From: Alphaproteobacteria bacterium
GTDB lineage: Bacteria; Pseudomonadota; Alphaproteobacteria; SMXQ01
Length of the DNA: 40,607 bases
NCBI GenBank assembly: GCA_009380075.1
Contig: WHSO01000027.1
Location: forward strand, 1 to 40,607
Direction: 5' to 3'
The stretch's first letter is position 1. Each line of letters begins with the position of its first letter. The notes under the pieces were generated by a model. The model ran no database searches. It saw nothing but the letters and a program-made list of their open reading frames with translations, and was not told where the DNA came from. This document shows, piece by piece, positions 9,480 to 28,910 of this stretch. The position numbers were made by a program, and so were the translations under genes.

Positions 9480-11294
9480 TCACCGGCTCGAAGATGCGAA
9501 GGGATGCAAACGGCGCCCGACGATACCGAGTCTTTCGAACAACTCGTCGTCGATGGTGCTGTTGGACCCGATCCCTTGCTTGCGTTTGAACTGGCGAATG
9601 GCCTGGCGAGTCTGCTCTCCCGCCCGACCGTTGACTTCGCCCGGTTCATATCCACGCTTCTTGAGTTCGGCCTGAACCAGAAGGACCATCTGGCCAACCG
9701 CCGTTATAGTTTCGCCTTCGTCTTTCGGAGCCGACAATGCGCGGTTCGCTCCCGTCGATTTCTTCTTTCGAGCAGACTTCCCAGGAGCAGCCTTTCCGGG
9801 GGCAGCTTTTTCGGGGGCAACCCTCGCGCTGCGGGTGGCGGGGCCTGGTGTCGGTCGTGCATTATCCGGAGCCGCCGGGTCAACGCGCGCGACGTCGGGG
9901 GATGGCGCTGGCTTGATCTCCGGTTCGGCCGAAGCACGGCCCTCTGGCGGCCGCGGCGGCACGCCGATCGCGGCGCTGGTCCCGGTGCCTTGGCCGGTCT
10001 CAGCCGGCGGCGTCCTGCCCTCATCACCTGTGCCACCGCCGGCGCGAGCCGTACCGGCATCGGGAGGAAGCGGCGGCGGAACAAACGAACGCGTCACCGT
10101 GTTGTCGGAGCGCATAAACGTATCGTCGGCGCGCGGGGACGGTGGCACGAACGGGGTCGGTCCTGCCGTCACCGTGCCCGGTTCACCGGTTGCACCAGAG
10201 CCCGGTTCTTTCAACGCCGGCGCCGTTGGTGCCGAAGCGATCCTGTCCGGAGGGGGAGCATCGTATGGCCGCGGCCATACGAGAGCGGCAGCGAGTACCA
10301 TGCACAATGCAGCGACGGCGTAGGACAACGTGTTTCCGCGCCTCGACTCGCGCCGATCCGCACGCTGATACGCACCGTCGGAACCCGTCGGGTCCGGCGC
10401 GAATCGGCGGGCAATCCATGCGTCCTCGTCGCGATCGTCTTCATACCGGTCGCCGGTACGCCATGCGTTTCCGTCAACTTGCCGCCTCGGTTCGAATCGG
10501 GGCTCTTCACGGCCGGCGTCATACCGGTCACGGGCAAAAGCGATCGAGTCTTCCTCCTCCCGCTCTTCCCGGATTCGATGATCTTCCGCTGATTGGCCGT
10601 CCTCGTCACCGTTCCGCGCAAGATTGAGGAAATCACGGCGCCCCATGCCATTCCCGTTCACGCGTCCGGCCGAAGGATGACGGAGCGTGTCTCGCGCCTC
10701 CTCGCGGCGGAAAGGCTGTTCTCCCGCGCTGGCGCCGCGTCGGGCTGGGTGTGCGACGCCGGGGGTCTCCGCGCCCTCCGGTGACGGTCGGCGCGCCGGT
10801 GGCGCATCTGGCGTCACGTGCTCGCGCGATGATCCCCCGGTTGTGCCGAACTCGGCCAGGGGGGGTTCGTCTCTCGTCACACGTTCGCGCGGTGAGCCTC
10901 GAAGGCCGGTCGCGCTGAACTCGGCCAGGGGGGGCTCGTCGCCAACGATGCGCGCAAAGGCGTCATCCGACCAAGTGGCGGGGACGTCGTCGGGCCGGCG
11001 CGGCCCGCCCGCGGCCATGGCGGCACGGCGGCGCGGGGCGACGGCGGGATCACCCTGCATCCAGTTTTCCGCCCAACTGCCCGTAAATAGCGGAGAATCG
11101 TTCCGCATGGTGCGGGTCTCCGGGTGGTCGTCGTCGGAATCCGCTTCCTTGCGCAGAAAAAGGGCATGGGGAATCGCAACGACCCCAAGGAGCGTACCGT
11201 ACGCCAGCCAGGGCAGGAAGGGCCGACCCTTGGTTCGGGCGATGAAGGCGGTGGCAAAACCAAGCGAGATAGCTGCGACGAGCCACGGAATCAT
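9480..11294 (-). CDS. membrane protein with disordered linker and C-terminal peptidoglycan-binding domain
   Basis: The 604-residue product starts with two membrane helices (MIPWLVAAISLGFATAFIA and FLPWLAYGTLLGVVAIPHAL). A long charged and Pro-rich region follows, including two copies of a 23-residue unit beginning DEPPLAEF. A third helix (SYAVAALCMVLAAALVW, about residue 330) is next, then another Pro/Ala-rich stretch. A basic Lys-rich patch (KSARKKKS) precedes a C-terminal PG_binding_1 domain (about 530-590), with LVQAELKKRGYEPGEVNGRAGEQTRQAIRQFKRKQ. The layout suggests a cytoplasmic N-terminal half joined through the membrane to a periplasmic wall-binding tail. I chose ATG 11294, preceded by GTGGGG, over an upstream in-frame start at 11360. 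Its function is unknown, and it resembles no named protein that I recognise as a whole. Confidence 0.82.
   Translation of the reverse strand: MIPWLVAAISLGFATAFIARTKGRPFLPWLAYGTLLGVVAIPHALFLRKEADSDDDHPETRTMRNDSPLFTGSWAENWMQGDPAVAPRRRAAMAAGGPRRPDDVPATWSDDAFARIVGDEPPLAEFSATGLRGSPRERVTRDEPPLAEFGTTGGSSREHVTPDAPPARRPSPEGAETPGVAHPARRGASAGEQPFRREEARDTLRHPSAGRVNGNGMGRRDFLNLARNGDEDGQSAEDHRIREEREEEDSIAFARDRYDAGREEPRFEPRRQVDGNAWRTGDRYEDDRDEDAWIARRFAPDPTGSDGAYQRADRRESRRGNTLSYAVAALCMVLAAALVWPRPYDAPPPDRIASAPTAPALKEPGSGATGEPGTVTAGPTPFVPPSPRADDTFMRSDNTVTRSFVPPPLPPDAGTARAGGGTGDEGRTPPAETGQGTGTSAAIGVPPRPPEGRASAEPEIKPAPSPDVARVDPAAPDNARPTPGPATRSARVAPEKAAPGKAAPGKSARKKKSTGANRALSAPKDEGETITAVGQMVLLVQAELKKRGYEPGEVNGRAGEQTRQAIRQFKRKQGIGSNSTIDDELFERLGIVGRRLHPFASSSR
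10848..10985 (-). repeat. two tandem 69-bp (23-codon) repeats within the membrane-protein gene
   Basis: A segment reading (plus strand) GAACTCGGCCAGGGGGGG recurs 69 bp later, at about 10848 and 10917. In protein this gives two copies of a unit starting DEPPLAEF and ending near RE(R/H)VT, inside the disordered cytoplasmic part. It is a coding tandem duplication. Copy number may vary between strains, and the G7 runs are potential slippage sites. Confidence 0.7.
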
Positions 11295-11662
11295 GGGAAC
11301 CCCACTACGACGAACCTCTGCGGCGGAGGGACCGGAGCCGTGCGCCGGCGCGCGCACCACGCATGGTCATTACATTACATTTACCATTAGACCCGTGCGA
11401 TGGGCACCCTATTCCTTCGTTCCGTGCAATCCGCCTCACGGGAATGGTCTGGAATCCCGGTCGGAATCGGGTCTCCATTTCGCATCAGTATTTAGGGAAT
11501 CCCGGAATAAAGCACGCGTGCCACGGTCTGACATTAGTGTCGGAACTGTGATGGTCACAGCATGTCGCGGATTGTTCACAGGACTGACAAGTAACCGCGT
11601 CGCCTGAAGGGGAGGGAGTCGCGCGACAGCGCAACTATCGGAAATGAAAAGGAGACCTCGCC
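11295..11662. promoter_or_regulatory. divergent promoter region of the membrane-protein gene and the EPS regulator
   Basis: This 368-bp gap between divergent genes is markedly more AT-rich than its surroundings. Around 11363-11387, an ATGGT...ACCAT inverted repeat encloses ATTAC repeats, placed 70-90 bp before the minus-strand gene. Nearer the plus-strand gene are two palindromes (11530-11541, 11546-11560) and a further TCACAG at 11576-11581. I could not settle on -35/-10 elements. The arrangement looks like multiple operators, with autoregulation by the downstream regulator as one possibility. Confidence 0.55.
11530..11581. promoter_or_regulatory. pair of palindromes plus repeated TCACAG, candidate operators
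   Basis: GACA-ttag-TGTC (11530-11541) is followed four bases later by the perfect dyad CTGTGA-tgg-TCACAG (11546-11560). TCACAG recurs at 11576-11581, exactly 21 bases (two helical turns) after its first copy. The spacing is that expected for cooperative protein binding on one face of the helix. The 3-base spacer is too short for a CRP/FNR site (6 expected). The binding protein is unknown. Confidence 0.55.
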
Positions 11663-12562
11663 GTGTCCGACCTCCCGACGTCGCTTCGAATCGGCGCCTC
11701 GCCGGCGTTATCACTACCCACGGCCGACGACCCGTTGACAGGCGTGACCATTGCGACACCCGACGTGGCCACGGCGCACGCCAAGCCGAGCGGGCGCAGC
11801 CAGGAAATCCTGCTCGCTCTGCCCAAGGATGACTACCTCAAGGCGTTGTCCGCCTACCTGCGCAAGCAGGGACTGACGGTCATCGAAACGGAAACCGCGC
11901 GGGCAACCATCGTTCAGGCCCTCACCGGGGAAAAGATCGGCGTCATCGTGACCGCCGACGACCTTCCGGACCTCCCCGGCATGGAACTTCTGGCCCGGCT
12001 CCGGGATCTCGGCGTGGCCACGCCGATCGCGCTCCTAGTCGACGCCTATAGCGAGGTCCGGGAAGAAGTCGCGCTCGAATGTGGCGCCGCCGAATTCCTG
12101 TGCCGGTCCCAGCGCCACTCCATCGTCGCCAAGCGATTGAGTCTCCTCGCCGCGGGGTCCAAGCGGAATTCACGCCAGGATCCGTCGGCGACCGAGAACC
12201 TGAAGGTCGGGCGTCTCCTGCTCAAGTCCCACTGCCATCGCGCCCTGTGGCGGGGCCGGGAAGTGCCTCTTACGATCACCGAAGTCCGCATCGTACGCCT
12301 GCTGGCCTGTCGTGCCGGAACGACGATCTCCTACCGCGAGATCTACGACGTCGTGCACGGCGCAGGGTTCCGGGCGGGGGAAGGAACGGACGGGTTTCGC
12401 ACCAACGTCCGCTCGCTCATTCGCAAGATCCGGCGCAGGTTCCACACCATCGACCACGGATTCGACGAGATCGAGAATCACCCGGGGATCGGATACTGCT
12501 GGCGCAGCGCACCGGCAGCACAGGCGCTCCCGCCGCCGGCCCGCAGCTCAATGACCGACTGA
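11663..12562 (+). CDS. ChvI-like winged-helix regulator with degenerate receiver domain
   Basis: The 299-residue protein has a receiver-like fold at about residues 47-165 and an OmpR-type winged helix at about 180-282. The latter is close to the C-terminal half of ChvI response regulators (LTITEVRIVRLLACRAG, TDGFRTNVRSLIRKIRRRF, FDEIENHPGIGYCWR). The receiver lacks the phosphorylation machinery. By alignment, the phospho-accepting Asp is Ala98 (in VIVTADDLPD), the acidic pair is Leu53-Pro54, the conserved Thr is Val126 and the Lys is Arg148. A disordered 46-residue N-terminal extension precedes it. GTG at 11663 has a good AAGGAG eight bases upstream. No histidine kinase gene is nearby. As first gene before the EPS export genes, it probably controls the locus independently of phosphorylation. 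This last point is inference. Confidence 0.88.
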   Translation: MSDLPTSLRIGASPALSLPTADDPLTGVTIATPDVATAHAKPSGRSQEILLALPKDDYLKALSAYLRKQGLTVIETETARATIVQALTGEKIGVIVTADDLPDLPGMELLARLRDLGVATPIALLVDAYSEVREEVALECGAAEFLCRSQRHSIVAKRLSLLAAGSKRNSRQDPSATENLKVGRLLLKSHCHRALWRGREVPLTITEVRIVRLLACRAGTTISYREIYDVVHGAGFRAGEGTDGFRTNVRSLIRKIRRRFHTIDHGFDEIENHPGIGYCWRSAPAAQALPPPARSSMTD

Positions 12563-12695: not shown

Positions 12696-13427
12696 ATGCA
12701 AAACCAAGCGCCGAATCGACACCAATTGGTCACAAGGTTGCGGTCCGGCACGTTGATAACCTTGATTGCTGGCTTTGGCAATTCCCTGTCCACGCGTCGC
12801 GGTTGCTTTATGCGAGGTCTTCAACGTTTCTGCAGGGCACCGTCCATCGCCGGCATACCTGCATGTCGGGCGACGTGGCGCGCTTTGGCGAGCGGTCTTT
12901 TCCTGACGATGGTACTGTCGGCATGCGGCGCGCCGTCCGTCCCCGCCGCTTCCGTGGTACCTCCATCCGAAAACAGCTACCGGCTCGACGCAGGGGACAA
13001 GATTCGTGTCTCGGTATTCGGCGAACCGAATCTTACCGGCGAATACCAGGTTGACGGCGGCGGTACCGTGACTTTTCCGCTGGTTGGCCGCGTGAAGGCA
13101 GCGGGCCTGACGTCGGATGGACTCAAGCAGACGTTGGAAGCGAGATACCGGGAATACCTCAAGGCACCGGACGTCAGTGTAGCGATTCTGAGCTATCGGC
13201 CGTTCTACATTGTTGGCGAGGTCAACAAGCCTGGAAATTATCCCTATATCAGCGGCATCACGGTGATCAACGCAGTCGCAATCGCAGGCGGATTCACCTA
13301 CCGGGCAAATACCACCAACTTCTACGTTCAGCGCAAGAAGAGCGACGCCAGTTCGCAGATTGTTGCCGAACAGACGACCGAAGTAAGACCGGGTGACGTC
13401 ATCATCGTTCGTGAACGGTACTTCTGA
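12696..13427 (+). CDS. outer-membrane polysaccharide export lipoprotein (Wza-like)
   Basis: The product forms, by family, the outer-membrane export channel for exopolysaccharide. After a lipobox (LSAC, Cys at residue 77) and a short linker comes the Poly_export domain, with YRLDAGDKIRVSVFGEPNLTGEYQVDGGGTVTFPLVG in segments. An SLBB-type domain follows (FYIVGEVNKPGNYPYISGITVINAVAIAGG). The mature protein is short, about 166 residues, and lacks the extra domains of E. coli Wza, as is typical for alphaproteobacterial homologues. The start at 12696 has an excellent AAGGAG, yet puts an unusual 55-60 residues before the hydrophobic signal core. An in-frame ATG at 12810 gives a more normal signal peptide but has no ribosome-binding site. 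The gene is two bases ahead of the Wzc-like gene. Confidence 0.92.
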   Translation: MQNQAPNRHQLVTRLRSGTLITLIAGFGNSLSTRRGCFMRGLQRFCRAPSIAGIPACRATWRALASGLFLTMVLSACGAPSVPAASVVPPSENSYRLDAGDKIRVSVFGEPNLTGEYQVDGGGTVTFPLVGRVKAAGLTSDGLKQTLEARYREYLKAPDVSVAILSYRPFYIVGEVNKPGNYPYISGITVINAVAIAGGFTYRANTTNFYVQRKKSDASSQIVAEQTTEVRPGDVIIVRERYF

Positions 13428-13429
13428 TC

Positions 13430-15688
13430 ATGAAAAACCAGCTTGGTCCTCAGCTTGATCGCGTAGCCGCCGCACCGACGGCTTGGGCGGCGCCGATGCC
13501 TGCCCCGTATTACAGTGCAAGCGACGACGGGCTATGGGTCGTTGCCCTCAAACTCTGGCAGCGGAAATGGATTGTCCTCGGAGTCACGGCGGCCTGCATC
13601 CTTGCCGCCGGCCTTGTGGTGGCGATGCTGACCCCGCGCTATACGGCGGAAAGCCAGGTGATTGTGGGGGTCCAGACCCCACGCGTCCTCAGCGTCGACG
13701 CCATTCTCAGTGGACTGACCGCCAATTCCGAAACGGTACAGAGCGAAGCGTATATCATTACATCGCGGGCGACGGCGGAAAAGGTCGCTCGCAACTTCAA
13801 GCTCGACAAGCTTCCGGAGTTCAATGCGGCCCTGCGCCCCAAGTCCGTTTTCGACATCTCCCAGTTGCCGGGCGTCAGCACCATCAAGAGTTTGCTGAAG
13901 CCCCCACCCCCGCAAACGGAGACCAGCACGGCCAACCGGCTGACGAAGGACGAGGTCACCTGGAACCGCGTCATTTCGACGCTCCTCGGCAGCATTCAGG
14001 TCACCCCGCTCAACCGCTCCCACATCGTCAGCATCAAGGCCGAATCCGAAGACCCCCAGCTCGCGGCCCGCCTGGCGAACGGCTTCGCCGCCGCCTATAT
14101 CGAACAACAATTGCAGACAAAGCAGACCACCGCGACCGACGCAGACCAGTGGCTCGATCAGCGTATCGCTCAACTGCGCAAGCAGGTCGAACGCGCCGAC
14201 ACGGCGGTCGAGACGTTCCGGCGTGAAAACGGCCTGTACGAAACGAAATCGGACACCGTGATCGCCCAGCAACTCGCGGAACTGACGCGCGAAATGCTGG
14301 CCGCGCAGAATGCCAAGGTCGAGGCGGAATCACGGCGCCATCAGGCCCAATCGCAAGTGAACAATGCCGATTCGATGGAAAGCCTGCCGGCGGTCCTTCA
14401 GTCCCCGGTGATCCAGGCTCTGCGCAGCCAGCAATCGCAGCTCGAACAGAAATCGGCGCAACTTGGGTCGAGCTATACGGCGAAGCACCCGCTCCGGCGC
14501 GACATCGCCGCACAGATCAAGGACGTCAAGAGCAAGATCCGGGCGGAAGCTCAGCGCGTCGTCGACGGACTCAATCATCAGGTCCAGATGGCCGATGAGC
14601 GCTACCGCCGTGTCAAGCAGCAGATGGCGGCCCTGCAGGGCGATGTGGATCTGTCCAACGAGAAGAGGATCACCCTCAACCAACTGGATCGGGAAGCCCA
14701 GGCCAGCCGCGGCATGCTGGTATCCCTGCTTCAGCGGTCGAAGGAGACCGTCGACCAGCAAAGCCTCATGACCCCCGACGCGCGCATCACCTCGCAGGCC
14801 AACATCCCGCTTTCCCCTTCCTTCCCGAAGGCCGGACTCATGATCGTGCTTGCCGCGTTCGCGGGTGTAACCGGCGGGACGCTGCTGGCGCTTCTCCTCG
14901 AGGGGGCCGATCAATCCTACCGCAATCGCGAAGAGGTCGAGCGCGACACCGGCCTGCCCGTTCTCGCGGTCGTGCCGTCGGCGTCCCGGAGCGAGCGTCG
15001 CAATGCCGACCGGCGCGCGCCGTACTGGGAATCCCTGCAGATGCTGAATACCCGGCTTTCGTTGCGCACGCCCCGGGAAGGCGGCGTGCGGGGCAGCGTT
15101 CTGTTCACCTCGGCCGAATCCGGCGAGGGCAAGACCAATGTGAGCGCCGCCTACGCGCGGCTCCTCGCCCTCGATGGACACCGGGTGGTGATCGTCGAGC
15201 TCGACTGGAAACGGCCCAGCCTGCATGCCGTGCTTGGGCAGCCCCAACGGGTCGGACTGGCCGAGCTCCTGCACGGCTACGTCACGCCCGAAGAGTCGGT
15301 GTACCGTGAGCCGGCGACGGGGCTCCACGCCATCTTCGCCGGCAACGGGGAGCACATCGCAAGGAGCGGCATCTGGCTCGCCCGGCTGCGTCTGCTGCTG
15401 GGAACGCTGTCGCGCCACTACGACGTCATCGTCCTGGATACGGCGCCGGCGTCGGTGACACCGGAGGTGCTGCGCGTGTCCCAACTGGTCGAGCAGACGG
15501 TCTTTGTGGTGAAATGGCACAGCACCCCGCGCCGCGCCGTCCTCAACGAATTGCGCAATTTCCAGCACGCGGGCGCGGACCTTGCGGGTATCGTCTTCTC
15601 CCAGGTCAATCTCGGCCGCTACCGGCAATACGCGTACGGAAACGCCGATCACCGGCACCGCAACCATCTCGCCTATGACGCCGGATAA
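13430..15688 (+). CDS. Wzc/GumC-like polysaccharide co-polymerase with tyrosine-kinase domain
   Basis: The 752-residue inner-membrane protein controls chain length and couples polymerisation to export. A Wzz domain starts at the first membrane helix (about 41-62), followed by a long coiled-coil periplasmic part (about 230-420). A second membrane helix (about 465-490) leads to a cytoplasmic BY-kinase-type ATPase domain (about 530-735). Walker A is SAESGEGKT (about 560-568), and Walker B is VIVLDTAPA (about 665). Walker A' reads VVIVELDWKRP (about 587-597), where the family has DxDxR, so the first Asp is Glu and the Arg is Lys. The C-terminus has four Tyr residues (RYRQYAYG and LAYDAG), fewer than the dense cluster of E. 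coli Wzc. Kinase activity is therefore likely but unproven. The ATG lies two bases after the lipoprotein stop. Confidence 0.93.
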   Translation: MKNQLGPQLDRVAAAPTAWAAPMPAPYYSASDDGLWVVALKLWQRKWIVLGVTAACILAAGLVVAMLTPRYTAESQVIVGVQTPRVLSVDAILSGLTANSETVQSEAYIITSRATAEKVARNFKLDKLPEFNAALRPKSVFDISQLPGVSTIKSLLKPPPPQTETSTANRLTKDEVTWNRVISTLLGSIQVTPLNRSHIVSIKAESEDPQLAARLANGFAAAYIEQQLQTKQTTATDADQWLDQRIAQLRKQVERADTAVETFRRENGLYETKSDTVIAQQLAELTREMLAAQNAKVEAESRRHQAQSQVNNADSMESLPAVLQSPVIQALRSQQSQLEQKSAQLGSSYTAKHPLRRDIAAQIKDVKSKIRAEAQRVVDGLNHQVQMADERYRRVKQQMAALQGDVDLSNEKRITLNQLDREAQASRGMLVSLLQRSKETVDQQSLMTPDARITSQANIPLSPSFPKAGLMIVLAAFAGVTGGTLLALLLEGADQSYRNREEVERDTGLPVLAVVPSASRSERRNADRRAPYWESLQMLNTRLSLRTPREGGVRGSVLFTSAESGEGKTNVSAAYARLLALDGHRVVIVELDWKRPSLHAVLGQPQRVGLAELLHGYVTPEESVYREPATGLHAIFAGNGEHIARSGIWLARLRLLLGTLSRHYDVIVLDTAPASVTPEVLRVSQLVEQTVFVVKWHSTPRRAVLNELRNFQHAGADLAGIVFSQVNLGRYRQYAYGNADHRHRNHLAYDAG

Positions 15689-15692
15689 GGCC

Positions 15693-16949
15693 ATGTCCCC
15701 GAACACGATCACGTCGGCGCTTGTTGTGAGCCAGCACTATTGGCCGGAACCGATCGGCTCGGCACCGTACGTGACCGACTTGGCAGACTGGCTTGCCGCC
15801 GGGGGCAGCCGGGTTCATGTGCTCACCTGCCGCCCGCATTATCCCGAAGGAAAGGTCCCGCGCGCCTACCGCTACGGCCGCCGCGACGTGGAGGCACACC
15901 AGGGTGTCCTGATCGAGAGGGTCCCGCCGTTCCAGCCGGGGCATCGGGGAACGCTCGGGCGCGTGATCCGGGAAGGCCTGTTCCTGCTGCAGGGCCTGTG
16001 GGCGCTGGCGACGGGACGAATCCAGCGCAGCCCGTTCGTCGTCTCCCTGTGCCCCTCCATCTTCGCGGTGCTCCTCGGCGTGGCCGCACGCCGCCCCGAC
16101 GGCCGCCACACGGTCCTGGTTCATGACATCCAGTCGGGCCTCGCGGCGGGGCTCGGCATGGTCGGCCGTTTCGGCCTGCCGGCGCTGATGCGCTGGCTCG
16201 AACGCGTCGTCCTCGAGCGCGCCGACCTCATCCTCGTGCTGTCCCACAACATGCGGACGACCCTCAGGAACCAGGGGGTGCGCGCGCCGATCGAGATCCT
16301 GCCGATCTGGGTGGACACCGGCACCATTCGGCCGGAGCGCGCGCCCCGCGGCGACGCCCTGACCGTGATGTACAGCGGCAACTTCGGCCGCAAGCAGGGG
16401 CTGATGCAGATCGTGGACATGGCCGAACGCCTGCAGCAGCGGGGAACTCCCGTACGGATCCTGCTGCGCGGAGAGGGCAGCGAAGGGGCGCGTATTGCCG
16501 CCGAAATTTCGATGCGCGGGCTGCGGCACGTGCGCCTGGCGCCGCTGACGCCGCTGGAAGAGTTGTCGAGCAGTCTCGCGCAAGGCGCGATCCATTTCGT
16601 CCCCCAGGACGCCAACGCCGCGGATTTTGCCGTTCCGTCGAAGGTCTACGCCATCATGGCGAGTGGCCGTCCGTTCGTTGCCGCGGCCCGGCCCGGCAGC
16701 CAGCTCTGGGACCTGAGTACACGATCACAGGCATTCCTCTGCGTTCCTGCAGGCGATACCGATGCCATCGCCGATGCGGTAGAGAGGCTCGTGCGCGATC
16801 CCGCCTTTCGAATCAAGCTGGGGTGCAACGGGCGCCGATACGCCCTGCGCTATCACGACAAGGCCCTGGTGCTGGGGCGGTTCCGCGCCCTCGCCACGGC
16901 CCAGCACGCAGCGTTGCCATGGCGACTTCGTCCGTCCCACATCTCCTGA
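15693..16949 (+). CDS. WcaI-like family-4 glycosyltransferase
   Basis: The 418-residue cytoplasmic enzyme has the GT-B layout. The N-terminal domain opens with VVSQHYWPEPIGSAPYVTDL and HVLTCRPHYPEGKV, as in WcaI/WbuB-type transferases. The C-terminal GT4 domain has VMYSGNFGRKQGL, ILLRGEGSEG and the donor-binding region FAVPSKVYAIMASGRPFVAAA. It presumably adds one sugar to the lipid-linked repeat unit. Neither donor nor acceptor can be read from the sequence. The preferred ATG at 15693 lies just after the Wzc stop and has GGATAAGG close upstream. An in-frame ATG at 15675 overlaps that stop and is the alternative. Confidence 0.88.
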   Translation: MSPNTITSALVVSQHYWPEPIGSAPYVTDLADWLAAGGSRVHVLTCRPHYPEGKVPRAYRYGRRDVEAHQGVLIERVPPFQPGHRGTLGRVIREGLFLLQGLWALATGRIQRSPFVVSLCPSIFAVLLGVAARRPDGRHTVLVHDIQSGLAAGLGMVGRFGLPALMRWLERVVLERADLILVLSHNMRTTLRNQGVRAPIEILPIWVDTGTIRPERAPRGDALTVMYSGNFGRKQGLMQIVDMAERLQQRGTPVRILLRGEGSEGARIAAEISMRGLRHVRLAPLTPLEELSSSLAQGAIHFVPQDANAADFAVPSKVYAIMASGRPFVAAARPGSQLWDLSTRSQAFLCVPAGDTDAIADAVERLVRDPAFRIKLGCNGRRYALRYHDKALVLGRFRALATAQHAALPWRLRPSHIS

Positions 16950-18196
16950 TCCTCGAGCCGGACAGCCGTGGCCATGTCCGCGAGTGGATCAGCTATCTCG
17001 TAGCGGCGGCGCACAAGGCGGGGCCCGATGCCCTGCGCCTGAGCCTAGCAGTGCCCCCTAGCCTTGCCGAGGAACTCGAACGCACGTTGCCCCCCGTGCG
17101 GCATCGCAATGTGCGGGCCATGGCGCTTACGCCACGCGAAGTCGCCGCCTGCATGCACCGCCAGCTCTGGATCAGCGGGATGGCCCGGTGGTGGATCATG
17201 CGCCGCCTCATGGCGCGCGCCGCGGCGACGCACGGTCTGTTTCTCGCTCTCGACCACCTGTCGCTTCCCCTGGCACTCGGCCTGGGGGCGGGTCATCGGC
17301 CCCTGTCAGGCATCCTGTTCCGTCCGTCGGTGCATTACCAGCACATCAACGCCCATCCGCCGTCCTTGCGCGAGCGACTTCGCGAATTGCGCAAGGTGGT
17401 CCTTTACCGATTGATGCTTCGCAATCCCGCAGTCGGAGCCGTCCTTTCCCTCGACCCCTATTTCGCCGATTTCGCGGCTCACCATTACCCCCGGGCAAGC
17501 AAGGTGACGACAATCCCGGATCCCGTCTGCCTGGCGCCTGATCCGGCGGCGGACGAACGCCGGCTCGCGACCCGCGTACCGAACGAACGCAAGCTGTTCC
17601 TCCTGTTCGGCGAACTGACCGCGCGCAAGGGCGTTCTCGTCCTGCTCGAGGCCTTGCAGCGTGTTCCGCCCGAACTGGCGTGCCAAATCGCTGTCGTCGT
17701 CGCCGGTCCGCTGGATCCGCCAATCCGCGACGCCGTGCGCAGCACGGTCGCCCATATCCATCGTCTCCGGCCCGACCTCTGGCTGCATCTCGAGGACCGG
17801 CGCCTCGCCAGCGGAGAGATCGTCGCGCTCCTCGAGCGCAGCCAGGTGGTCCTGGCGCCCTACCAGCGCTTTGTTGGGTCGAGCGGGATCATCCTCTGGG
17901 CGGCGCAGGCGAGGCGGCCGGTACTGTGTCAGGATTACGGCCTGGTCGGCCGGCTGACGCGCGATTTCGGGCTCGGGATGGCGCTGGATACGACAGATAC
18001 CGCCGCCCTGGCCCAAGCGCTAGGCGCGGTTGCACGCGACACCGCGGCCATCAAATTCGACACCCGCGGCATGGAACGGCTCTGCAACGAACGAAAGCCG
18101 GAGCGATTCGCCCAGATCGTGATCGAAGGCGCGCTCTGCGGCCACCATGACACGCGTCTTGCGCCGGCATCGGCCGGGCGGGAAGCGCTGCCCTAG
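16919..18196 (+). CDS. glycosyltransferase (GT4-like)
   Basis: The 425-residue protein has a GT-B arrangement. The N-terminal part begins HLLILEPDSRGHVREWISYLV. The C-terminal part has KLFLLFGELTARKGVLVLLEAL (start of the second Rossmann domain) and the segment VVLAPYQRFVGSSGIILWAAQARRPV in the donor-site position, then GLGMALDTTDTAAL. The usual ExxxxxxxE motif is not clear, so it is a divergent GT4. ATG 16919 lies inside the end of the previous gene (31-base overlap), indicating coupled translation. It is part of the EPS operon, and the sugar transferred is unknown. Confidence 0.8.
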   Translation: MATSSVPHLLILEPDSRGHVREWISYLVAAAHKAGPDALRLSLAVPPSLAEELERTLPPVRHRNVRAMALTPREVAACMHRQLWISGMARWWIMRRLMARAAATHGLFLALDHLSLPLALGLGAGHRPLSGILFRPSVHYQHINAHPPSLRERLRELRKVVLYRLMLRNPAVGAVLSLDPYFADFAAHHYPRASKVTTIPDPVCLAPDPAADERRLATRVPNERKLFLLFGELTARKGVLVLLEALQRVPPELACQIAVVVAGPLDPPIRDAVRSTVAHIHRLRPDLWLHLEDRRLASGEIVALLERSQVVLAPYQRFVGSSGIILWAAQARRPVLCQDYGLVGRLTRDFGLGMALDTTDTAALAQALGAVARDTAAIKFDTRGMERLCNERKPERFAQIVIEGALCGHHDTRLAPASAGREALP

Positions 18197-18291
18197 ACTG
18201 ATCACAGCCGTCCACGGCTTGGTCACACCCGCTCCACCGGCCGGAATGGGATAAGAAACCATATCGGTTCGTCAACGCGTTGGAGGTCCTT
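18197..18291 (+). promoter_or_regulatory. intergenic region with hairpin and TCACA motifs before the WcaJ-type gene
   Basis: This 95-bp gap is the largest inside the downstream part of the plus-strand EPS arm. It has a small hairpin, AGCCG-tcca-CGGCT (18206-18219), flanked by GATCACAG (18200-18207) and GGTCACAC (18221-18228). These resemble motifs upstream of the regulator gene and of gmd. A GGAGG site at 18282-18286 precedes ATG 18292. An internal promoter is plausible but no -10 element stands out. Confidence 0.35.
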
Positions 18292-19785
18292 ATGATCCTG
18301 CAGGGTCGGCTGCAGCACCCGTTTGCTGGCTTGACCGGGCGCCAGTGCGCGCGTGGCGCCGACCCGACTTGGGCGCCCAAGCCGATTTCGGCGGCCGTCC
18401 TCTGCGCGCTGCTGGCCGTCCTGGACGTCGTCACCATTGCCGGGACCGCCATCGCGGCCTACGTCGTATGGCTGTTTCAGGACCCCTATTCGACGTGGCG
18501 CGAGTACGCATTGGTGACGGCGTTCGGTGTCCTGCTCGCGGTCAATGCCTTCAACCTTGCGCGGCTTTACGATCCAGCGCTTCTGCACAAGCGGAGCCAG
18601 ACGCTTGGCCGCACCGTGGTCTGCTGGTGCACCGTAGCGTCCATCCTGATGACCATGAGCTTTCTGACCAAGACGTCCGAGGACTACTCCCGCATCTGGG
18701 CCATGATGTGGTTCGGCGCCGCGCTGACCGGCCTTGTGGCGACACGATGGCTGCTCATGGCGCGGGTCGCGCAATGGGTCGACGAGGGGCGGCTCCAGCG
18801 CAAGGTCGCCATTGTCGGGGTGGGCCCGCTCGCACGCAAGCTGGCCGCGCGGTTCCGGCAGGGCTCGAAGGAAGGCATCCGCCTCGTCGGTTTGTTCAGC
18901 GACGATGCCAGGCCAAACGATTCCCGCGCCCCCGACGCGTCCTTCGGCGGTGACCTGCGCCAGCTCAACCGGATCGTGCGGCTTGGCGCCGTCGACACGG
19001 TGATCGTCGCCGAAGAGCATGCCCCGCTCGAGCGCCTCGATGACATTTTCGAAAACCTGCGCGAAGTCCCGGCCGACGTGCGCTTCTGTCCCGGGGAGAT
19101 GGCCTTGCGCCTGAGCCAGCACGGCGTGTCCCATTACGCCGGTGTCCCGATGATCAACGTCGTGGACCGGCCGCTGTCGGAATGGCGCTACGTCGTGAAG
19201 GAGATCGAAGACCGCGTTCTCGGCACGTTGATCCTCCTGATGATATCGCCGGTGCTTCTGGGTATCGCCGCACTCGTCAAACTCGACAGCCGCGGGCCGG
19301 TTCTCTTCCGTCAACCGCGCTATGGCTACAACAACCAGCTGGTCGAGGTCTGGAAATTCCGCACGATGCACCACGACCGCCAAGATTCCCGAGCCGAACA
19401 GCTGACCCGCCAGGATGATCCGCGCGTCACGCGGGTCGGGCGCTTCCTGCGGCGCTGGAGCCTGGACGAACTACCGCAGTTCATCAACGTGGTCCGTGGC
19501 GAAATGTCCATCGTCGGGCCGCGGCCGCACGCGGTCTCCGCCAAGGCCGGGGGAATGCTGTACCAGCACGCCGTCCCCCATTATGACGCGCGCCACCGCG
19601 TGAAGCCGGGGATTACCGGCTGGGCCCAGATCAATGGCTGGCGGGGCACGACCGACACCGTCCGTCAGATCGAGAAGCGGGTGGAACATGACATGTACTA
19701 CATCGAGCATTGGTCGGTTTGGCTCGATCTCAAGATCATCGTCCTGACCCTGTTCAAGGGATTTTCCGGACGGCATGCCTACTGA
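18292..19785 (+). CDS. undecaprenyl-phosphate sugar-1-phosphate transferase, WcaJ/GumD type
   Basis: This enzyme starts repeat-unit synthesis by moving a sugar phosphate, usually glucose-1-phosphate, from a UDP-sugar to undecaprenyl phosphate at the inner membrane. The 497-residue protein has four or so N-terminal helices (about 35-150), and a central CoA-binding-like Rossmann domain (about 165-285, KVAIVGVGPLARKLAARF). A re-entrant helix and the bacterial sugar transferase domain follow (about 300-497), with FRQPRYGYNNQLVEVWKFRTM, DDPRVTRVGRFLRRWSLDELPQ and VVRGEMSIVGPRPHA. The architecture is that of the WcaJ family. Glucose specificity is likely by family but not provable here. I chose ATG 18292, behind GGAGG, rather than the in-frame TTG at 18280. 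Confidence 0.93.
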   Translation: MILQGRLQHPFAGLTGRQCARGADPTWAPKPISAAVLCALLAVLDVVTIAGTAIAAYVVWLFQDPYSTWREYALVTAFGVLLAVNAFNLARLYDPALLHKRSQTLGRTVVCWCTVASILMTMSFLTKTSEDYSRIWAMMWFGAALTGLVATRWLLMARVAQWVDEGRLQRKVAIVGVGPLARKLAARFRQGSKEGIRLVGLFSDDARPNDSRAPDASFGGDLRQLNRIVRLGAVDTVIVAEEHAPLERLDDIFENLREVPADVRFCPGEMALRLSQHGVSHYAGVPMINVVDRPLSEWRYVVKEIEDRVLGTLILLMISPVLLGIAALVKLDSRGPVLFRQPRYGYNNQLVEVWKFRTMHHDRQDSRAEQLTRQDDPRVTRVGRFLRRWSLDELPQFINVVRGEMSIVGPRPHAVSAKAGGMLYQHAVPHYDARHRVKPGITGWAQINGWRGTTDTVRQIEKRVEHDMYYIEHWSVWLDLKIIVLTLFKGFSGRHAY

Positions 19786-19811: not shown

Positions 19812-21002
19812 ATGCGGTACCTGTGGTTGACGTGGATCGACCCCGCGCCCGAACACGACGGGCAGCGGATTTATTCCGGTCGCCTCATCGATGCGGTCTC
19901 CGCCGCGGGCGGTGAAATCGAGGTCCTTTGCTTCGCCAACAAGAACTCGCCGCGCCGGCCCGGCGTCGCGGAAGGGAACGTGCGCTGGTGGCCGGTGCCG
20001 TGCGCGCCGCATTCTCCCTTCGCGAGCATCTTTTCGCCGTTGCCCAACATCGCCTACCGCTCCTATACCGCCGACATGCGCCGCGGGCTGCACGCCCTGG
20101 CGTCCCAAGGGCACTGGGACACGGTGGTCCTCGACGGGCTTTACGCCGGCTGGGCCCTGCCCCATCTCGAGCGCATCCGCGCCGCCAATGGCGAGCCGGC
20201 ACGTGTCGTCTATGTCTCCCACAATCATGAATCCAGCCTGCGTCCGGATATTGCCCAAAACTATCGCGGCAACCCCGTCAAGGCCGCGCTGCTGCGACAC
20301 GATGCCGTGAAGTCGATCCGGACGGAACGCGACATCCTCGACAGGTCGAACCTGATCACCGCCATCACAGAAGAAGACGCTACCCGCTTCCGCGAGAGCC
20401 ATCCCGGCAAACGGATCGTTGCCCTGCCGCCGGGATATTCGGGACGGCGCCTCTCACGCCGATGCATCACGGCCGATCTGCCCCGCCGGGCGGTGATCCT
20501 CGGCAGTTTCGACTGGGTCGCGAAAAGCATGAACCTCGAGGAATTCATCGCCGTGGCCGACCCGCGTTTTGCGGCGGCCGGGGCCGAACTCCAGGTGATC
20601 GGCAACAGCGATTCCGGCCTGCTCGACACGCTGCGGCGCCAGGTCCGAGCGACAAATCTGGTGGGCGAGGTTCCGGAAGTGGAATCCTATCTTGAAAATT
20701 CGCGCATCGCCATCGTGCCGGAACGTACCGGCGGAGGCTTCAAGCTCAAGGTACTCGACTACGTCTTCAATCGGCTGCCGGTGGCGGCGATCGTCGGATC
20801 GGTCGCGGGGACCCCGCTGCGGCCACTCGAATCGATACTGACCTTCGACAGCCTCGAACGGCTCGCTGCCGGGGTGATCCGGGCGCTCGACGACCTGCCG
20901 CTGCTCAACCGGCTGCAGGACTGCGCTTACGCGGCGTGCGTCGACCGATTCGACTGGCGCCGGCGCGGCGAATCCTTCGTGGCGGAAACGGCCGCCGCAT
21001 GA
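19812..21002 (+). CDS. glycosyltransferase (GT4 family)
   Basis: The 396-residue protein opens with YLWLTWIDPAPEHDGQRIYSGRLIDAV, the acceptor-side start of GT4 enzymes that act on polysaccharide repeat units. The second Rossmann domain starts near AVILGSFDWVAKSMNLEEFI. It then shows LQVIGNSDSG and the donor-binding segment IAIVPERTGGGFKLKVLDYVFNRLPVAA, where the first Glu of the EX7E motif is at the PERTGGG position. A GGAG six bases before ATG 19812 supports the start. Its stop overlaps the next gene by ATGA. The sugar it transfers is unknown. Confidence 0.85.
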   Translation: MRYLWLTWIDPAPEHDGQRIYSGRLIDAVSAAGGEIEVLCFANKNSPRRPGVAEGNVRWWPVPCAPHSPFASIFSPLPNIAYRSYTADMRRGLHALASQGHWDTVVLDGLYAGWALPHLERIRAANGEPARVVYVSHNHESSLRPDIAQNYRGNPVKAALLRHDAVKSIRTERDILDRSNLITAITEEDATRFRESHPGKRIVALPPGYSGRRLSRRCITADLPRRAVILGSFDWVAKSMNLEEFIAVADPRFAAAGAELQVIGNSDSGLLDTLRRQVRATNLVGEVPEVESYLENSRIAIVPERTGGGFKLKVLDYVFNRLPVAAIVGSVAGTPLRPLESILTFDSLERLAAGVIRALDDLPLLNRLQDCAYAACVDRFDWRRRGESFVAETAAA

Positions 21003-22375
21003 CCCGCGGCATTGCCGTCCCACACCCGCCTACCGGGGCAAGCCAGATGCTTGTCCTGCTTTTTTTCATCGGGATCTACAGCGGTATCTCGTTCAAGCTT
21101 CCGGGCGGCATCCCCGTGCCCGCCGTCATCGCAGGCCTGGCCGGAGCCCTGCTTCTCATGGTGGAATCGCCGCGCATCAAAGAACGCCACCTGTTCGCCA
21201 TCATCGCGGTGCTCATGCTCTATGCCCTATCGATTCTTTCGGCGTCGGACATCCGCTTGCTCGGCGAGCGATTCAAGGGCCTTGTCCAGCTTACGTATTC
21301 ACTGATGGTCGGCTACGCGCTCTTTCTTGCGCTGACCCGCTTCCACCGCTCACAGCTTGCCACCGTAATGCTCGGCTTCAGCATGGTGATACTGATCGGT
21401 TGCGCACTGGAGAGCAGCGACGCGTTCAAGGGCACCAGCGATGCGTTCCGCGCCTGGGCGTTCGATTCCGGCGTCTACAAGGCGGACCTCCGCGATCAGG
21501 AATTCTACGGGCGCATCCGTCCCAAGCTATTCACGTCGGAGCCGTCCGCAGTTGCCTTCATGTTTTCCCTGTTCACCTTTGCCTGGTACGCGCTGTCGGA
21601 CATGAAATGGAAACTGATGGGTTTTCTTGTCCTGATTGGCACCGGCTATTTCGTGATGCGCGGTCCGACGCTGCTCCTGTGCCTCGCGCTGGTGCCCGTT
21701 TACGAACTTTTGCTCGGCGCGCGCCGGGGCCCTCCGGGGAACTCACACCTCAGCATCGGCCGCGTCGCGGCAACGATCGTGCTGACGGCGGTTCTGATCG
21801 GGATCGCGGTACCCGTGGTCCACACGCTCTACGCCGCCCGCCTCGAGGCCATAATGTCGGGCCAGGACCCGAGCTTCTTTTCCCGCATCATCGCGCCGCC
21901 CTTGGTGGCATTCGAGGTCATTTCGGCAAATCCCGCTGCAGGCGCCGGCCTGACCGGCTGGGAGTTCATCGAGGATGCGACGAGTCAAGTCTACGGCACC
22001 GCGGCGTGGCTTTCGACCGACTACCGGTTCGACACCGCGGCGCAGGCCATTACCAATTATTTCTGGCTGCACTGGATCTATCTCGGCCTGTTCTGGGGCG
22101 GGGTCATGCTCGTGGCACTTTCCCTGATGCTGCAGAGTCTTGGCGTGCCCAGCGTCCTGTTCTGCTGGATGGTCTGGGCGCTCTTCGGGCAGGGCTCGGG
22201 CTCTTACGTCGGGCCCCAGGCCTGGACGGTGCTGTTCCTGTCCGCCGCGATCGCCGTGGTCGTTGAGCGAGACCGCCTGCTGCGTCACACCCGGCGGCCC
22301 GCTGCCGTACGCGAACGAGGCGATACGCCGGAGATGCCCATGCCGGCACCGGCGTTGACACGAGGCGTCCGTTGA
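20999..22375 (+). CDS. Wzy-like polysaccharide polymerase (O-antigen ligase-like membrane protein)
   Basis: The 458-residue protein is almost entirely membrane helices, about ten to eleven. A periplasmic loop lies at about residues 135-180 (DAFKGTSDAFRAWAFDSG) and a longer one at about 280-360, near PAAGAGLTGWEFIEDAT. This is the layout of Wzy polymerases and WaaL-type ligases, whose sequences diverge strongly. Its place between glycosyltransferases of a Wzx/Wzc/Wza cluster, with no other polymerase candidate in the locus, makes Wzy the best call. The start is ATG 20999 in an ATGA overlap with the previous gene. The last 30 residues are charged and cytoplasmic. No sequence motif can confirm the reaction. 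Confidence 0.8.
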   Translation: MTRGIAVPHPPTGASQMLVLLFFIGIYSGISFKLPGGIPVPAVIAGLAGALLLMVESPRIKERHLFAIIAVLMLYALSILSASDIRLLGERFKGLVQLTYSLMVGYALFLALTRFHRSQLATVMLGFSMVILIGCALESSDAFKGTSDAFRAWAFDSGVYKADLRDQEFYGRIRPKLFTSEPSAVAFMFSLFTFAWYALSDMKWKLMGFLVLIGTGYFVMRGPTLLLCLALVPVYELLLGARRGPPGNSHLSIGRVAATIVLTAVLIGIAVPVVHTLYAARLEAIMSGQDPSFFSRIIAPPLVAFEVISANPAAGAGLTGWEFIEDATSQVYGTAAWLSTDYRFDTAAQAITNYFWLHWIYLGLFWGGVMLVALSLMLQSLGVPSVLFCWMVWALFGQGSGSYVGPQAWTVLFLSAAIAVVVERDRLLRHTRRPAAVRERGDTPEMPMPAPALTRGVR

Positions 22376-26343: not shown

Positions 26344-27657
26344 CTAGGCGTGACAGGCAACGGGAACGTCCTTTCGACCCCGGCGGTTGCCGGAGACCAC
26401 CACGTCGTGTATCCCGGAACCGCCCAGCAGCATTTCGTAGATTCGGATGAGGGCGCGGTTCAGCACCCCGATTTCGAATTCGTCGGATACGTGCGCCCGC
26501 GCTGCGCGACTCATGGCCGGCCAGATATCCGGCCGCGCGACGAGATCCGCAAGTGCGTCGGCGAGACCCTTCGCATCCCGTTCCGGGACCAGGACACCGG
26601 ACCGCCCCGAGGTCACGAGCTCGGGGATTCCGCTGTGGTCCGTCGCCACCACCAGCATGCCCGAAGCCATCGCTTCCATCAGCGTAACCGGGATGCCCTC
26701 CTGGTCTCCGTCGGGTGTCGTCACGCTCGGCACCAGAAGCACGTCGTTGCGGGCCATATGCCGGATGACCTCGTGCTGATCCTGCCAGCCGCGGAAATTG
26801 ACGCAGTCGGAAATTCCGAGACGGTCCGCGAGATCCTCGAGGCGATCGCGCAGGTCTCCGTCACCGACCACGTCATAACGGACCGGAATGCTGCGATCGC
26901 GCAGCAGGACCACCGCCCGGAGCGCGTATTCGACGCCCTTCTTTTCCACGAGGCGTCCGACCGTCAGCAGCCGAAGGACCTTGTCCGGTTCGCACCGCCG
27001 CGGCCGGAAGCGATATTGATGGGGAGCCACCCCCATGTGATGCACGGCGATACGGGCGGGATCGCAGCCCAGTTTCACCAGCCGTCGCCGCCAGTTGTCG
27101 GAAATCGGCAGGAACACGTCCCCGCGCGAGAACAGGTATCGATAGTAGTTCGGCCTGTCGCGCGTTTCGGCGCTGATATCGACGCCGTGGAAAACGGTGC
27201 CGAGAACGCCGGATATCGCCCCGATCTCGCGCAGTATGGCCGCAAACTGGCCGATGGGACCGAAATGGCAATGAATGATGTCGAACGGGGGCTCCTCGAT
27301 CACGAGCGCCGACCAGTACAACAGGCGCAGCGACCACGCGTCGCGCCCGTACCGCCGTATTGACAGCGCACCCGGCACCGCGCCTGGGCGATTCCACAGG
27401 AGGTGCAGGAGCGGGACGAGGGCATACAGGACCCTGAGGACTTTCCCGCGCGGCATCCGAAGATAGCGCGTCCGTCCGATCAACCCGTCGCGGGCGACAT
27501 TGGGATGGATCCTCGGTTCGTCCCGCGGCCGCTCGGCGAATATCGTGACGTCATGACCGAGCGCAACCAGGCCGCTGACCTGATTGAGGATGAAGGTCTC
27601 GCTCAGGGCGGGAAACTCCCTGACGAAGACGGCGATGCGCAGGCTCTTCCGGTTCAT
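26344..27657 (-). CDS. WcaL/AmsK-like glycosyltransferase
   Basis: The 437-residue enzyme begins RIAVFVREFPALSETFILNQV, the hallmark of colanic-acid WcaL and amylovoran AmsK transferases. It goes on with DIIHCHFGPIGQFAA and TVFHGVDIS. The GT4 domain has LRLLTVGRLVEKKGVEYALRA, YDVVGDGDLRDRLEDLA and VLLVPSVTTPDGDQEGIPVTLMEAMASGMLVVATDHSGIPELV, in segments, with a complete EX7E motif. Family members transfer a galactosyl-type residue to the growing repeat unit, but specificity is not fixed by sequence. ATG 27657 overlaps the stop of the pyruvyl transferase (ATGA). The order flippase, pyruvyl transferase, WcaL equals that of the E. coli colanic-acid operon. Confidence 0.92.
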   Translation of the reverse strand: MNRKSLRIAVFVREFPALSETFILNQVSGLVALGHDVTIFAERPRDEPRIHPNVARDGLIGRTRYLRMPRGKVLRVLYALVPLLHLLWNRPGAVPGALSIRRYGRDAWSLRLLYWSALVIEEPPFDIIHCHFGPIGQFAAILREIGAISGVLGTVFHGVDISAETRDRPNYYRYLFSRGDVFLPISDNWRRRLVKLGCDPARIAVHHMGVAPHQYRFRPRRCEPDKVLRLLTVGRLVEKKGVEYALRAVVLLRDRSIPVRYDVVGDGDLRDRLEDLADRLGISDCVNFRGWQDQHEVIRHMARNDVLLVPSVTTPDGDQEGIPVTLMEAMASGMLVVATDHSGIPELVTSGRSGVLVPERDAKGLADALADLVARPDIWPAMSRAARAHVSDEFEIGVLNRALIRIYEMLLGGSGIHDVVVSGNRRGRKDVPVACHA

Positions 27658-28910
27658 GACGCGACCGCGAGGGCCTCCTTCACATGTTCGCCGGCGGCGA
27701 AGGCGGAACGGCGTTCCTTGGCGACAAGCCCGGGGATGATTGCGGAGAGGTCCGAGCGGACCGCCAGGAAATGCTCAAACGCCGCGCACAGGCCTTCGGG
27801 AGTGACCGTTTCGATGTCCTGCACCAATCCGCCAAGCCCGAGCTTCGCGAACAGCTCCGAGGTCTTGAACTCATAGGCGATCGGAAGGACCGGCACCCCC
27901 ATGAGCAGGGCGAGAATCGCCACATGCAGGCGCGTCGCAACCACGGCATCGAACCGGCCGAGAACGGACATGAGCTGCCAAGGGGTGTGAAAATCCCGGT
28001 CGATCCGGACGGCGTCACGTAACGGCGGGTCGAGACGACGGACGACCGCGGCCGCGGTGGCCGAATCGTCGGTCCAGTAGTCCCCGGCGCCCTGGCATGT
28101 CGAGACGAAGGTGACCTCGGCGCCGTGGCGAGTGACAAGGTCCGAGGTCAGCGCGGCGACGGCGTCGAAATACGTGGTCATGCCGTCCGAGGAGCGCATA
28201 TGGGGCCAATCGCGCACGGAAATGGCGACCTGCAACGGGCCCCGGTTTTCCCGCGCCTGCGAGTCGCAGCGTCTTTCACTCGGCAACGGCAGGGCGAAAG
28301 CGGCGTCGGCGCATTCGATGATCCGCTCCGGACGAACGCGCAGCGCCTCGAGGTAATGACGCGAGCGCGTGTCACGCACGAGGATCAGCCGCGCGTGGCG
28401 CAGCACGAACCCCAGCATGCGGCCGTCACGGCCGCGGGGAAACGGGCCGAGGCTCTGGGTAAACAGGACATAGGGGCGGCCCATGGCGTACGCCACCAGG
28501 AGATCGGCGAGCTTCGGCAGAACCCGGTAGTGGGGCACCAGATAGGTCCCGCCGGCGGAAACCACCACACGGGCCGCGGCGATGCGGTCCAGCGCACCCC
28601 GGACAGCCGGTGGAAGGGACCGCGCGACACGGGAGCCAAGCGGCGTATGCCACAGGCGCGCCGCGATCAGCGCGCGGGCAAATCCCGCCCGCATCGACCC
28701 GTTGCGTCCGGTACTGTCCTGCAGCGCACCGAACATGGTCGGGTGGACGTCGAGGTCCGGATACGCCCGTGCGGCCGCGCCCGCCTGCAGATCGCACGCG
28801 GTGACGTGCAGATCGTCCCCCATGGCACGATGCAGGATACCGGCGGTGGCGAAGAGAATGGCGGCGTCGCCAGCGTTGAGGGCCGCGGTATTGGTGATGA
28901 GGGCGTTCAT
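27654..28910 (-). CDS. polysaccharide pyruvyl transferase (WcaK-like)
   Basis: The family (PF04230) adds pyruvate ketals from phosphoenolpyruvate to sugars of exopolysaccharides. The 418-residue protein starts ALITNTAALNAGDAAILFA. It has the glycine-rich SAGGTYLVPHYRVLPKLADL, LFTQSLGPF, LVRDTRSRHYLEAL and the C-terminal VVATRLHVAILALLMGVPVLPIAYE with the conserved Arg-His pair. The start at 28910 is set by ATGA overlap with the flippase stop. The frame stays open far upstream, but that extension runs antiparallel in frame-shifted register through the flippase gene and is not used. The product predicts an acidic, pyruvylated polymer. The phosphoenolpyruvate synthase at 6.8-9.3 kb could supply the donor, although the genes are not linked in one operon. 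Confidence 0.91.
   Translation of the reverse strand: MNALITNTAALNAGDAAILFATAGILHRAMGDDLHVTACDLQAGAAARAYPDLDVHPTMFGALQDSTGRNGSMRAGFARALIAARLWHTPLGSRVARSLPPAVRGALDRIAAARVVVSAGGTYLVPHYRVLPKLADLLVAYAMGRPYVLFTQSLGPFPRGRDGRMLGFVLRHARLILVRDTRSRHYLEALRVRPERIIECADAAFALPLPSERRCDSQARENRGPLQVAISVRDWPHMRSSDGMTTYFDAVAALTSDLVTRHGAEVTFVSTCQGAGDYWTDDSATAAAVVRRLDPPLRDAVRIDRDFHTPWQLMSVLGRFDAVVATRLHVAILALLMGVPVLPIAYEFKTSELFAKLGLGGLVQDIETVTPEGLCAAFEHFLAVRSDLSAIIPGLVAKERRSAFAAGEHVKEALAVAS

What the first reader, a model, noticed from the sequence alone, without database searches (positions are those of the whole stretch)
11663..12562. ChvI-like EPS regulator whose receiver has lost all phosphorylation residues
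The DNA-binding half is close to ChvI, the response regulator of an essential acid/envelope-stress system in many alphaproteobacteria. The receiver-like half lacks the phospho-Asp (Ala98), the acidic pair (Leu53-Pro54), the Thr (Val126) and the Lys (Arg148), and there is no kinase gene nearby. It opens a full exopolysaccharide export operon. It may be a phosphorylation-independent switch controlled by protein partners, by ligand or by its own level. A one-residue alignment shift could place Asp99 at the active site, but the other losses would remain.
Basis: partly seen in the sequence, partly recalled or inferred. Interest (0 to 1): 0.72.

Follow-up and report, generated by a model that had tools for sequence, protein, structure and literature searches.

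The report
Kinase-less pseudo-receiver regulator of exopolysaccharide operon
This gene encodes a DNA-binding regulator at the head of a polysaccharide-secretion gene cluster; its relatives are switched by a partner kinase, but here the kinase gene is gone and the switch domain can no longer be phosphorylated, although it is kept, so the protein must be controlled in another way.

Summary
The 299-aa OmpR-type regulator at 11663-12562 has Leu53-Pro54, Ala98, Val126 and Arg148 where receivers have Asp-Asp, phospho-Asp, Thr and Lys; Asp99 is not at the active site. No kinase gene lies in the window. 'Close to ChvI' is imprecise: the genome has its own ChvI (33% identity in the DNA-binding domain) and an intact, kinase-linked paralogue (52%). 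The protein belongs to a separate ChvI-like alphaproteobacterial family. All 88 sampled members with a kinase gene directly downstream keep every catalytic residue; all degenerate or missing receivers are kinase-less. A sister clade reads regulator-kinase-manC-(epimerase)-wza-wzc; close relatives of the window gene keep that order minus the kinase. Kinase loss came first, receiver decay second and in stages: the four nearest relatives still have Asp98 and Lys148. The receiver is not a relic: dN/dS is 0.055 in the one close pair available. It is a new member of a known kind, the pseudo-receiver atypical response regulators. Most likely it acts without phosphorylation, set by its level or a partner; the input is unknown. 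Cys216, present in 5/5 of the clade and 0/88 elsewhere, is a lead.

The parts
11663..12562 (+). Pseudo-receiver OmpR/PhoB-type regulator gene (299 aa)
11663..11797 (+). N-terminal extension, residues 1-45, low model confidence, probably disordered
11804..12151 (+). Pseudo-receiver domain, residues 48-163, (beta/alpha)5 fold
11819..11824 (+). Codons 53-54 (Leu-Pro) in place of the acidic metal-binding pair
11954..11956 (+). Codon 98 (GCC, Ala) in place of the phospho-acceptor Asp
12038..12040 (+). Codon 126 (Val) in place of the conserved Thr
12104..12106 (+). Codon 148 (Arg) in place of the conserved Lys
12200..12508 (+). Winged-helix DNA-binding domain, residues 180-282 (33 of 37 family-conserved residues kept)
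12308..12310 (+). Codon 216 (Cys), invariant in the five-member pseudo-receiver clade, absent in 88 intact relatives
11361..11662 (.). Divergent intergenic region; holds arms TGTCGGAACTGTGA/TCACAGGACTGACA (11538-11551, 11576-11589), an unproven operator candidate
12696..13427 (+). wza-type polysaccharide export protein (Poly_export, SLBB)
13430..15688 (+). wzc-type chain-length/autokinase protein (Wzz, GNVR, CbiA)
15582..16949 (+). Glycosyltransferase (ORF as listed; true start may be further in)
16823..18196 (+). Glycosyltransferase (ORF as listed; true start may be further in)
18280..19785 (+). Priming bacterial sugar transferase
9480..11360 (-). Divergent protein with a peptidoglycan-binding domain; neighbour conserved in L001, L002, L180, similar gene in L003 and L159

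Best explanation
It is a phosphorylation-independent transcription regulator of the adjacent exopolysaccharide cluster. It derives from the response regulator of a ChvGI-like two-component pair that sat at the head of such clusters; the kinase gene was lost from the cluster, and the receiver then lost its catalytic residues while its fold and most other family residues (including the acidic residue 144 and Arg158 on the alpha4-beta5-alpha5 face) were kept. Most likely working mode: the pseudo-receiver serves as a constitutive dimerisation or partner-docking module, so the protein binds its promoters without a phosphate, and output is set by how much of it is made or by a bound partner. Shown: the sequence losses, the predicted fold, kinase absence in an otherwise matching gene order, purifying selection in one pair of relatives. 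Inferred: dimerisation, target promoters, direction of regulation, control by level or partner.
For: All five sites substituted. Receiver fold kept: solved receivers superpose at 1.3-1.5 A over about 120 residues. 88 of 88 kinase-linked family members intact versus 9 of 16 kinase-less ones degenerate (with L075). Sister clade RR-HK-ManC-(Epi)-wza-wzc versus RR-ManC-Epi-wza-wzc in L001, L180, L002; kinase identity by Pfam HATPase/HisKA. Intact members: receiver/DBD identity 57.0/57.6%; degenerate clade 37.6/66.9%. L001 v L180 dN/dS 0.055 in the receiver and 0.051 in the DBD. 33 of 37 conserved DBD residues and 16 of 21 conserved non-catalytic receiver residues kept in the window protein, 0 of 6 around the catalytic site.
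Against: No expression, binding or regulon data. Only one close pair for dN/dS, and it is not the window gene itself. The link between kinase loss and decay rests on about 5 decays and 7 kinase losses; the paired test has too few independent pairs to be significant. L181 and L061, in the same clade, are not beside wza/wzc, so EPS control is not certain for the whole clade. No shared operator motif was found.
Confidence: 0.6

Rival explanations
1. Ligand- or redox-gated switch: the emptied receiver pocket, or the clade-specific Cys216 in the DNA-binding domain, senses a small molecule, an EPS precursor, c-di-GMP or an oxidant.
For: Cys216 is 5/5 in the clade and 0/88 in intact relatives, at a position that is variable and mostly polar elsewhere. 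The pocket has become mainly hydrophobic (L53, P54, A98, V126). Known pseudo-receiver proteins use disulfides (RitR), c-di-GMP (FleQ, VpsT) or end products (JadR1) (PMC12632262).
Against: Cys216 is one inherited change, not repeated evidence; there is no linker Cys as in RitR; the pocket residues differ between clade members, which argues against one shared ligand there.
Confidence: 0.18
2. Heterodimer partner: it acts by pairing with the intact family member of the same cell (G000:C28, with its kinase), so that kinase still controls EPS indirectly, as in BldM-WhiI.
For: An intact paralogue with a kinase is in the same genome and in the genomes of L001, L002, L180 and L181. The residue 144/158 pair is kept.
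Against: The genome of L003 has only the degenerate copy besides a ChvI-type match; the two receivers of the window genome are only 32% identical.
Confidence: 0.12
3. The receiver is a decaying relic; the DNA-binding domain alone acts, as in receiver-less family members.
For: L095 has a DNA-binding domain only and L094 little else; the receiver diverges faster than the DNA-binding domain in this clade.
Against: dN/dS 0.055 in the receiver of L001 v L180; 16 of 21 conserved non-catalytic receiver residues kept in the window protein; confident fold.
Confidence: 0.08
4. Artefact of a fragmented assembly or a mis-set reading frame.
For: The genome is in 162 contigs.
Against: Open frame, ribosome site, in-frame homology throughout, and other genomes with related decay and similar gene order.
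Confidence: 0.02

Closest known systems
Pseudo-receiver / aspartate-less receiver atypical response regulators (PMC12632262, PMC4395418)
   Same: PF00072 fold without the catalytic residues, orphan gene, common OmpR-type output
   Different: Here intact, intermediate and fully degenerate relatives exist in one family, with and without the kinase gene in one gene order
ChvI of ChvG-ChvI (ExoS-ChvI)
   Same: Same broad OmpR/PhoB class; ExoS-ChvI also controls exopolysaccharide in Sinorhizobium (PMC10659215 abstract); the kinases of the intact family members score for ChvG far below its cut-off
   Different: Separate paralogous family; own ChvI at G000:C52; 22% receiver and 33% DBD identity to it; no phosphorylation site
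RitR of streptococci
   Same: OmpR-type aspartate-less regulator, among the structural matches
   Different: RitR is activated through a Cys in the linker (PMC12632262); no linker Cys here
Rem of Agrobacterium
   Same: Alphaproteobacterial atypical response regulator (PMC12632262), held in check by MirA
   Different: From memory Rem controls motility, not EPS; its sequence was not compared here

Membership tests
Pseudo-receiver atypical response regulator (ALR subset) | Matches the receiver family PF00072 | tested here: met
   32.7 bits against cut-off 30.2
Pseudo-receiver atypical response regulator (ALR subset) | Lacks one or more of the DD, D, T, K residues; the ALR subset lacks the D | tested here: met
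   L53 P54 A98 V126 R148
Pseudo-receiver atypical response regulator (ALR subset) | (beta/alpha)5 fold | tested here: met
   Model and structure comparison
Pseudo-receiver atypical response regulator (ALR subset) | Works without Asp phosphorylation | not testable with these tools
   Needs biochemistry
ChvI orthologue | The genome's best counterpart of ChvI, paired with ChvG | tested here: not met
   Another gene, G000:C52, groups with the ChvI-type rows, one of which (L010) has a ChvG-type kinase next to it (352 bits on a match cut off by the locus end); the window protein falls elsewhere and has no kinase
ChvI-like second family (kinase-linked regulator) | Family DNA-binding signature | tested here: met
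   33 of 37 conserved residues; tree
ChvI-like second family (kinase-linked regulator) | Kinase gene directly downstream | tested here: not met
ChvI-like second family (kinase-linked regulator) | Intact DD, D, T, K receiver | tested here: not met
RitR-type redox switch | Single sensing Cys in the inter-domain linker | tested here: not met
   No Cys in residues 164-180 of the translation; a different Cys, 216, is conserved

The most novel reading that the evidence does not exclude
A clade of EPS regulators turned a two-component regulator into a one-component switch after losing its kinase, with a new input, possibly thiol chemistry at Cys216, and altered DNA reading (clade-fixed exchanges at 254, 255 and 259 in the recognition-helix region).
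Probability: 0.12. Interest if true: 0.62.

Novelty: new member of a known kind. Interest (0 to 1): 0.42.

Why it matters
How bacterial pseudo-receivers are activated and inactivated is described as a major unknown (PMC12632262). This family offers matched gene clusters with and without the kinase, and receivers at several stages of loss (intact orphans L061/L075, Asp98 kept in L001/L002, all lost here, domain gone in L094/L095), so the route from two-component to kinase-free control can be tested step by step. It also shows how control of exopolysaccharide production may have been freed from a sensor kinase.

Tried and rejected
Asp99 as the active residue through a one-residue shift: rejected. 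Orthology to ChvI: rejected. Assembly artefact: rejected. Shared upstream operator: a 12-mer comparison of 13 upstream regions gave matches within the kinase-linked clade and scattered GC-rich words only; repeats near 11538-11589 are a candidate, no more. Sigma-70 and terminator scans gave nothing above chance. No Rfam match in the window. A single clade of all six degenerate members is not rejected (p-AU 0.398), so one or two decays in this clade both fit. The independent-pairs test of kinase loss against receiver decay has too few pairs. Further close relatives for dN/dS were sought and not found. A first parsing of loci ignored strand and was redone.

Full report
What is there. The ORF at 11663-12562 (GTG start, good ribosome site) encodes 299 residues: a 45-residue, probably disordered extension, a receiver-like domain (48-163) and an OmpR/PhoB-type winged helix (180-282). 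It is followed on the same strand, after 133 bases, by wza, then wzc, glycosyltransferases and a priming sugar transferase.

Receiver residues. The five catalytic positions read Leu53, Pro54, Ala98, Val126, Arg148. MAFFT family alignments, a gap-free alignment to a profile of intact relatives, the match to PrrA and the strand ends of the model agree. The model has mean pLDDT 84.6; its receiver part superposes on solved receivers at about 1.3-1.5 A over 120 residues, so the fold is kept.

Which family. The nearest proteins come from Rhodospirillales and other alphaproteobacterial genomes (48-50% identity). A wider family occurs in 64 of 385 sampled genomes of the class. The window genome also has an intact paralogue with a kinase (G000:C28) and a separate ChvI (G000:C52). 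In trees of DNA-binding domains the ChvI-type rows are far outside.

Kinase and receiver go together. Among family members read in their contigs, all 88 with a kinase gene directly downstream are 100% conserved at the five positions (the tally of 93 includes five ChvI rows; a few rows may be one genome under two handles, and one row cut by a contig end is left out). All degenerate or missing receivers are kinase-less: the window, L001, L180, L002, L181, L003, L094, L095, L096. Seven kinase-less ones with enough contig around them are intact: L057, L061, L075, L076, L080, L101, L192. Parsimony gives 5 decays and 7 kinase losses. Because of relatedness the counts are not independent, and the paired test cannot reach significance.

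Order of events. In the EPS-linked sister clade L067, L068 and L070 read regulator, kinase, ManC, wza, wzc and L090 has an epimerase gene after ManC. L001, L180 and L002 read regulator, ManC, epimerase, wza, wzc; the window reads regulator, wza, wzc. The kinases are HATPase/HisKA proteins. The branch joining the two clades has support 86/87, the kinase-less clade 87/82, the window plus four relatives 100/94. L061 and L075, in the same kinase-less clade, keep intact receivers, so kinase loss most likely came first.

Stages. L001, L180 and L181 have His-Ala or His-Pro at the acidic pair, L002 Asp-Gly; all four have Ala or Ser for Thr126 and keep Asp98 and Lys148. Only the window protein lost those two as well. 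L003 has its own, larger losses.

Constraint. In intact members receiver and DNA-binding domain diverge equally (57.0 and 57.6% mean identity); in the degenerate clade the figures are 37.6 and 66.9%. Yet L001 v L180 has dN/dS 0.055 in the receiver and 0.051 in the DNA-binding domain. The domain seems to have changed its job rather than lost it, on the evidence of one pair.

Clade-specific features. Cys216 (5/5 v 0/88), Ala123, Leu116 and exchanges at 254, 255 and 259 in the DNA-binding helix mark the clade. These are leads only.

Known frame. Pseudo-receiver regulators are a recognised class; the characterised ones are mostly orphans, with diverse or unknown inputs (PMC12632262; PMC4395418). 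No paper on this family was found in five searches of an open-access library, which does not exclude one elsewhere.

Noticed in passing
L075 7881-10250 (-): An intact, kinase-less relative lies in one open frame (790 codons) with what looks like a ManC-type mannose-1-phosphate guanylyltransferase: a possible regulator-enzyme fusion.
   Followed up: partly
L094 8921-9502 (-), L095 8557-8952 (+), L096 8325-9122 (+): Family members whose receiver is nearly gone, absent, or unrecognisable, each without an adjacent kinase.
   Followed up: partly
window 9480-11360 (-): A protein with a peptidoglycan-binding domain is the conserved neighbour of the regulator in several genomes (L001, L002, L180; similar in L003, L159); function unknown.
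   Followed up: partly
window 27654-30125 (-): Polysaccharide pyruvyl transferase domain at residues 417-751 of an 823-aa ORF whose first 400 residues match no Pfam family.
   Followed up: no
window 20936-22375 (+): 479-aa ORF in the EPS cluster with no Pfam match; possibly a polymerase or flippase.
   Followed up: no
G000:C14:31429-31668 (-), G000:C140:3515-3766 (+): Two further sub-threshold receiver matches in the same genome (28.6 and 26.2 bits), possibly other atypical receivers.
   Followed up: no
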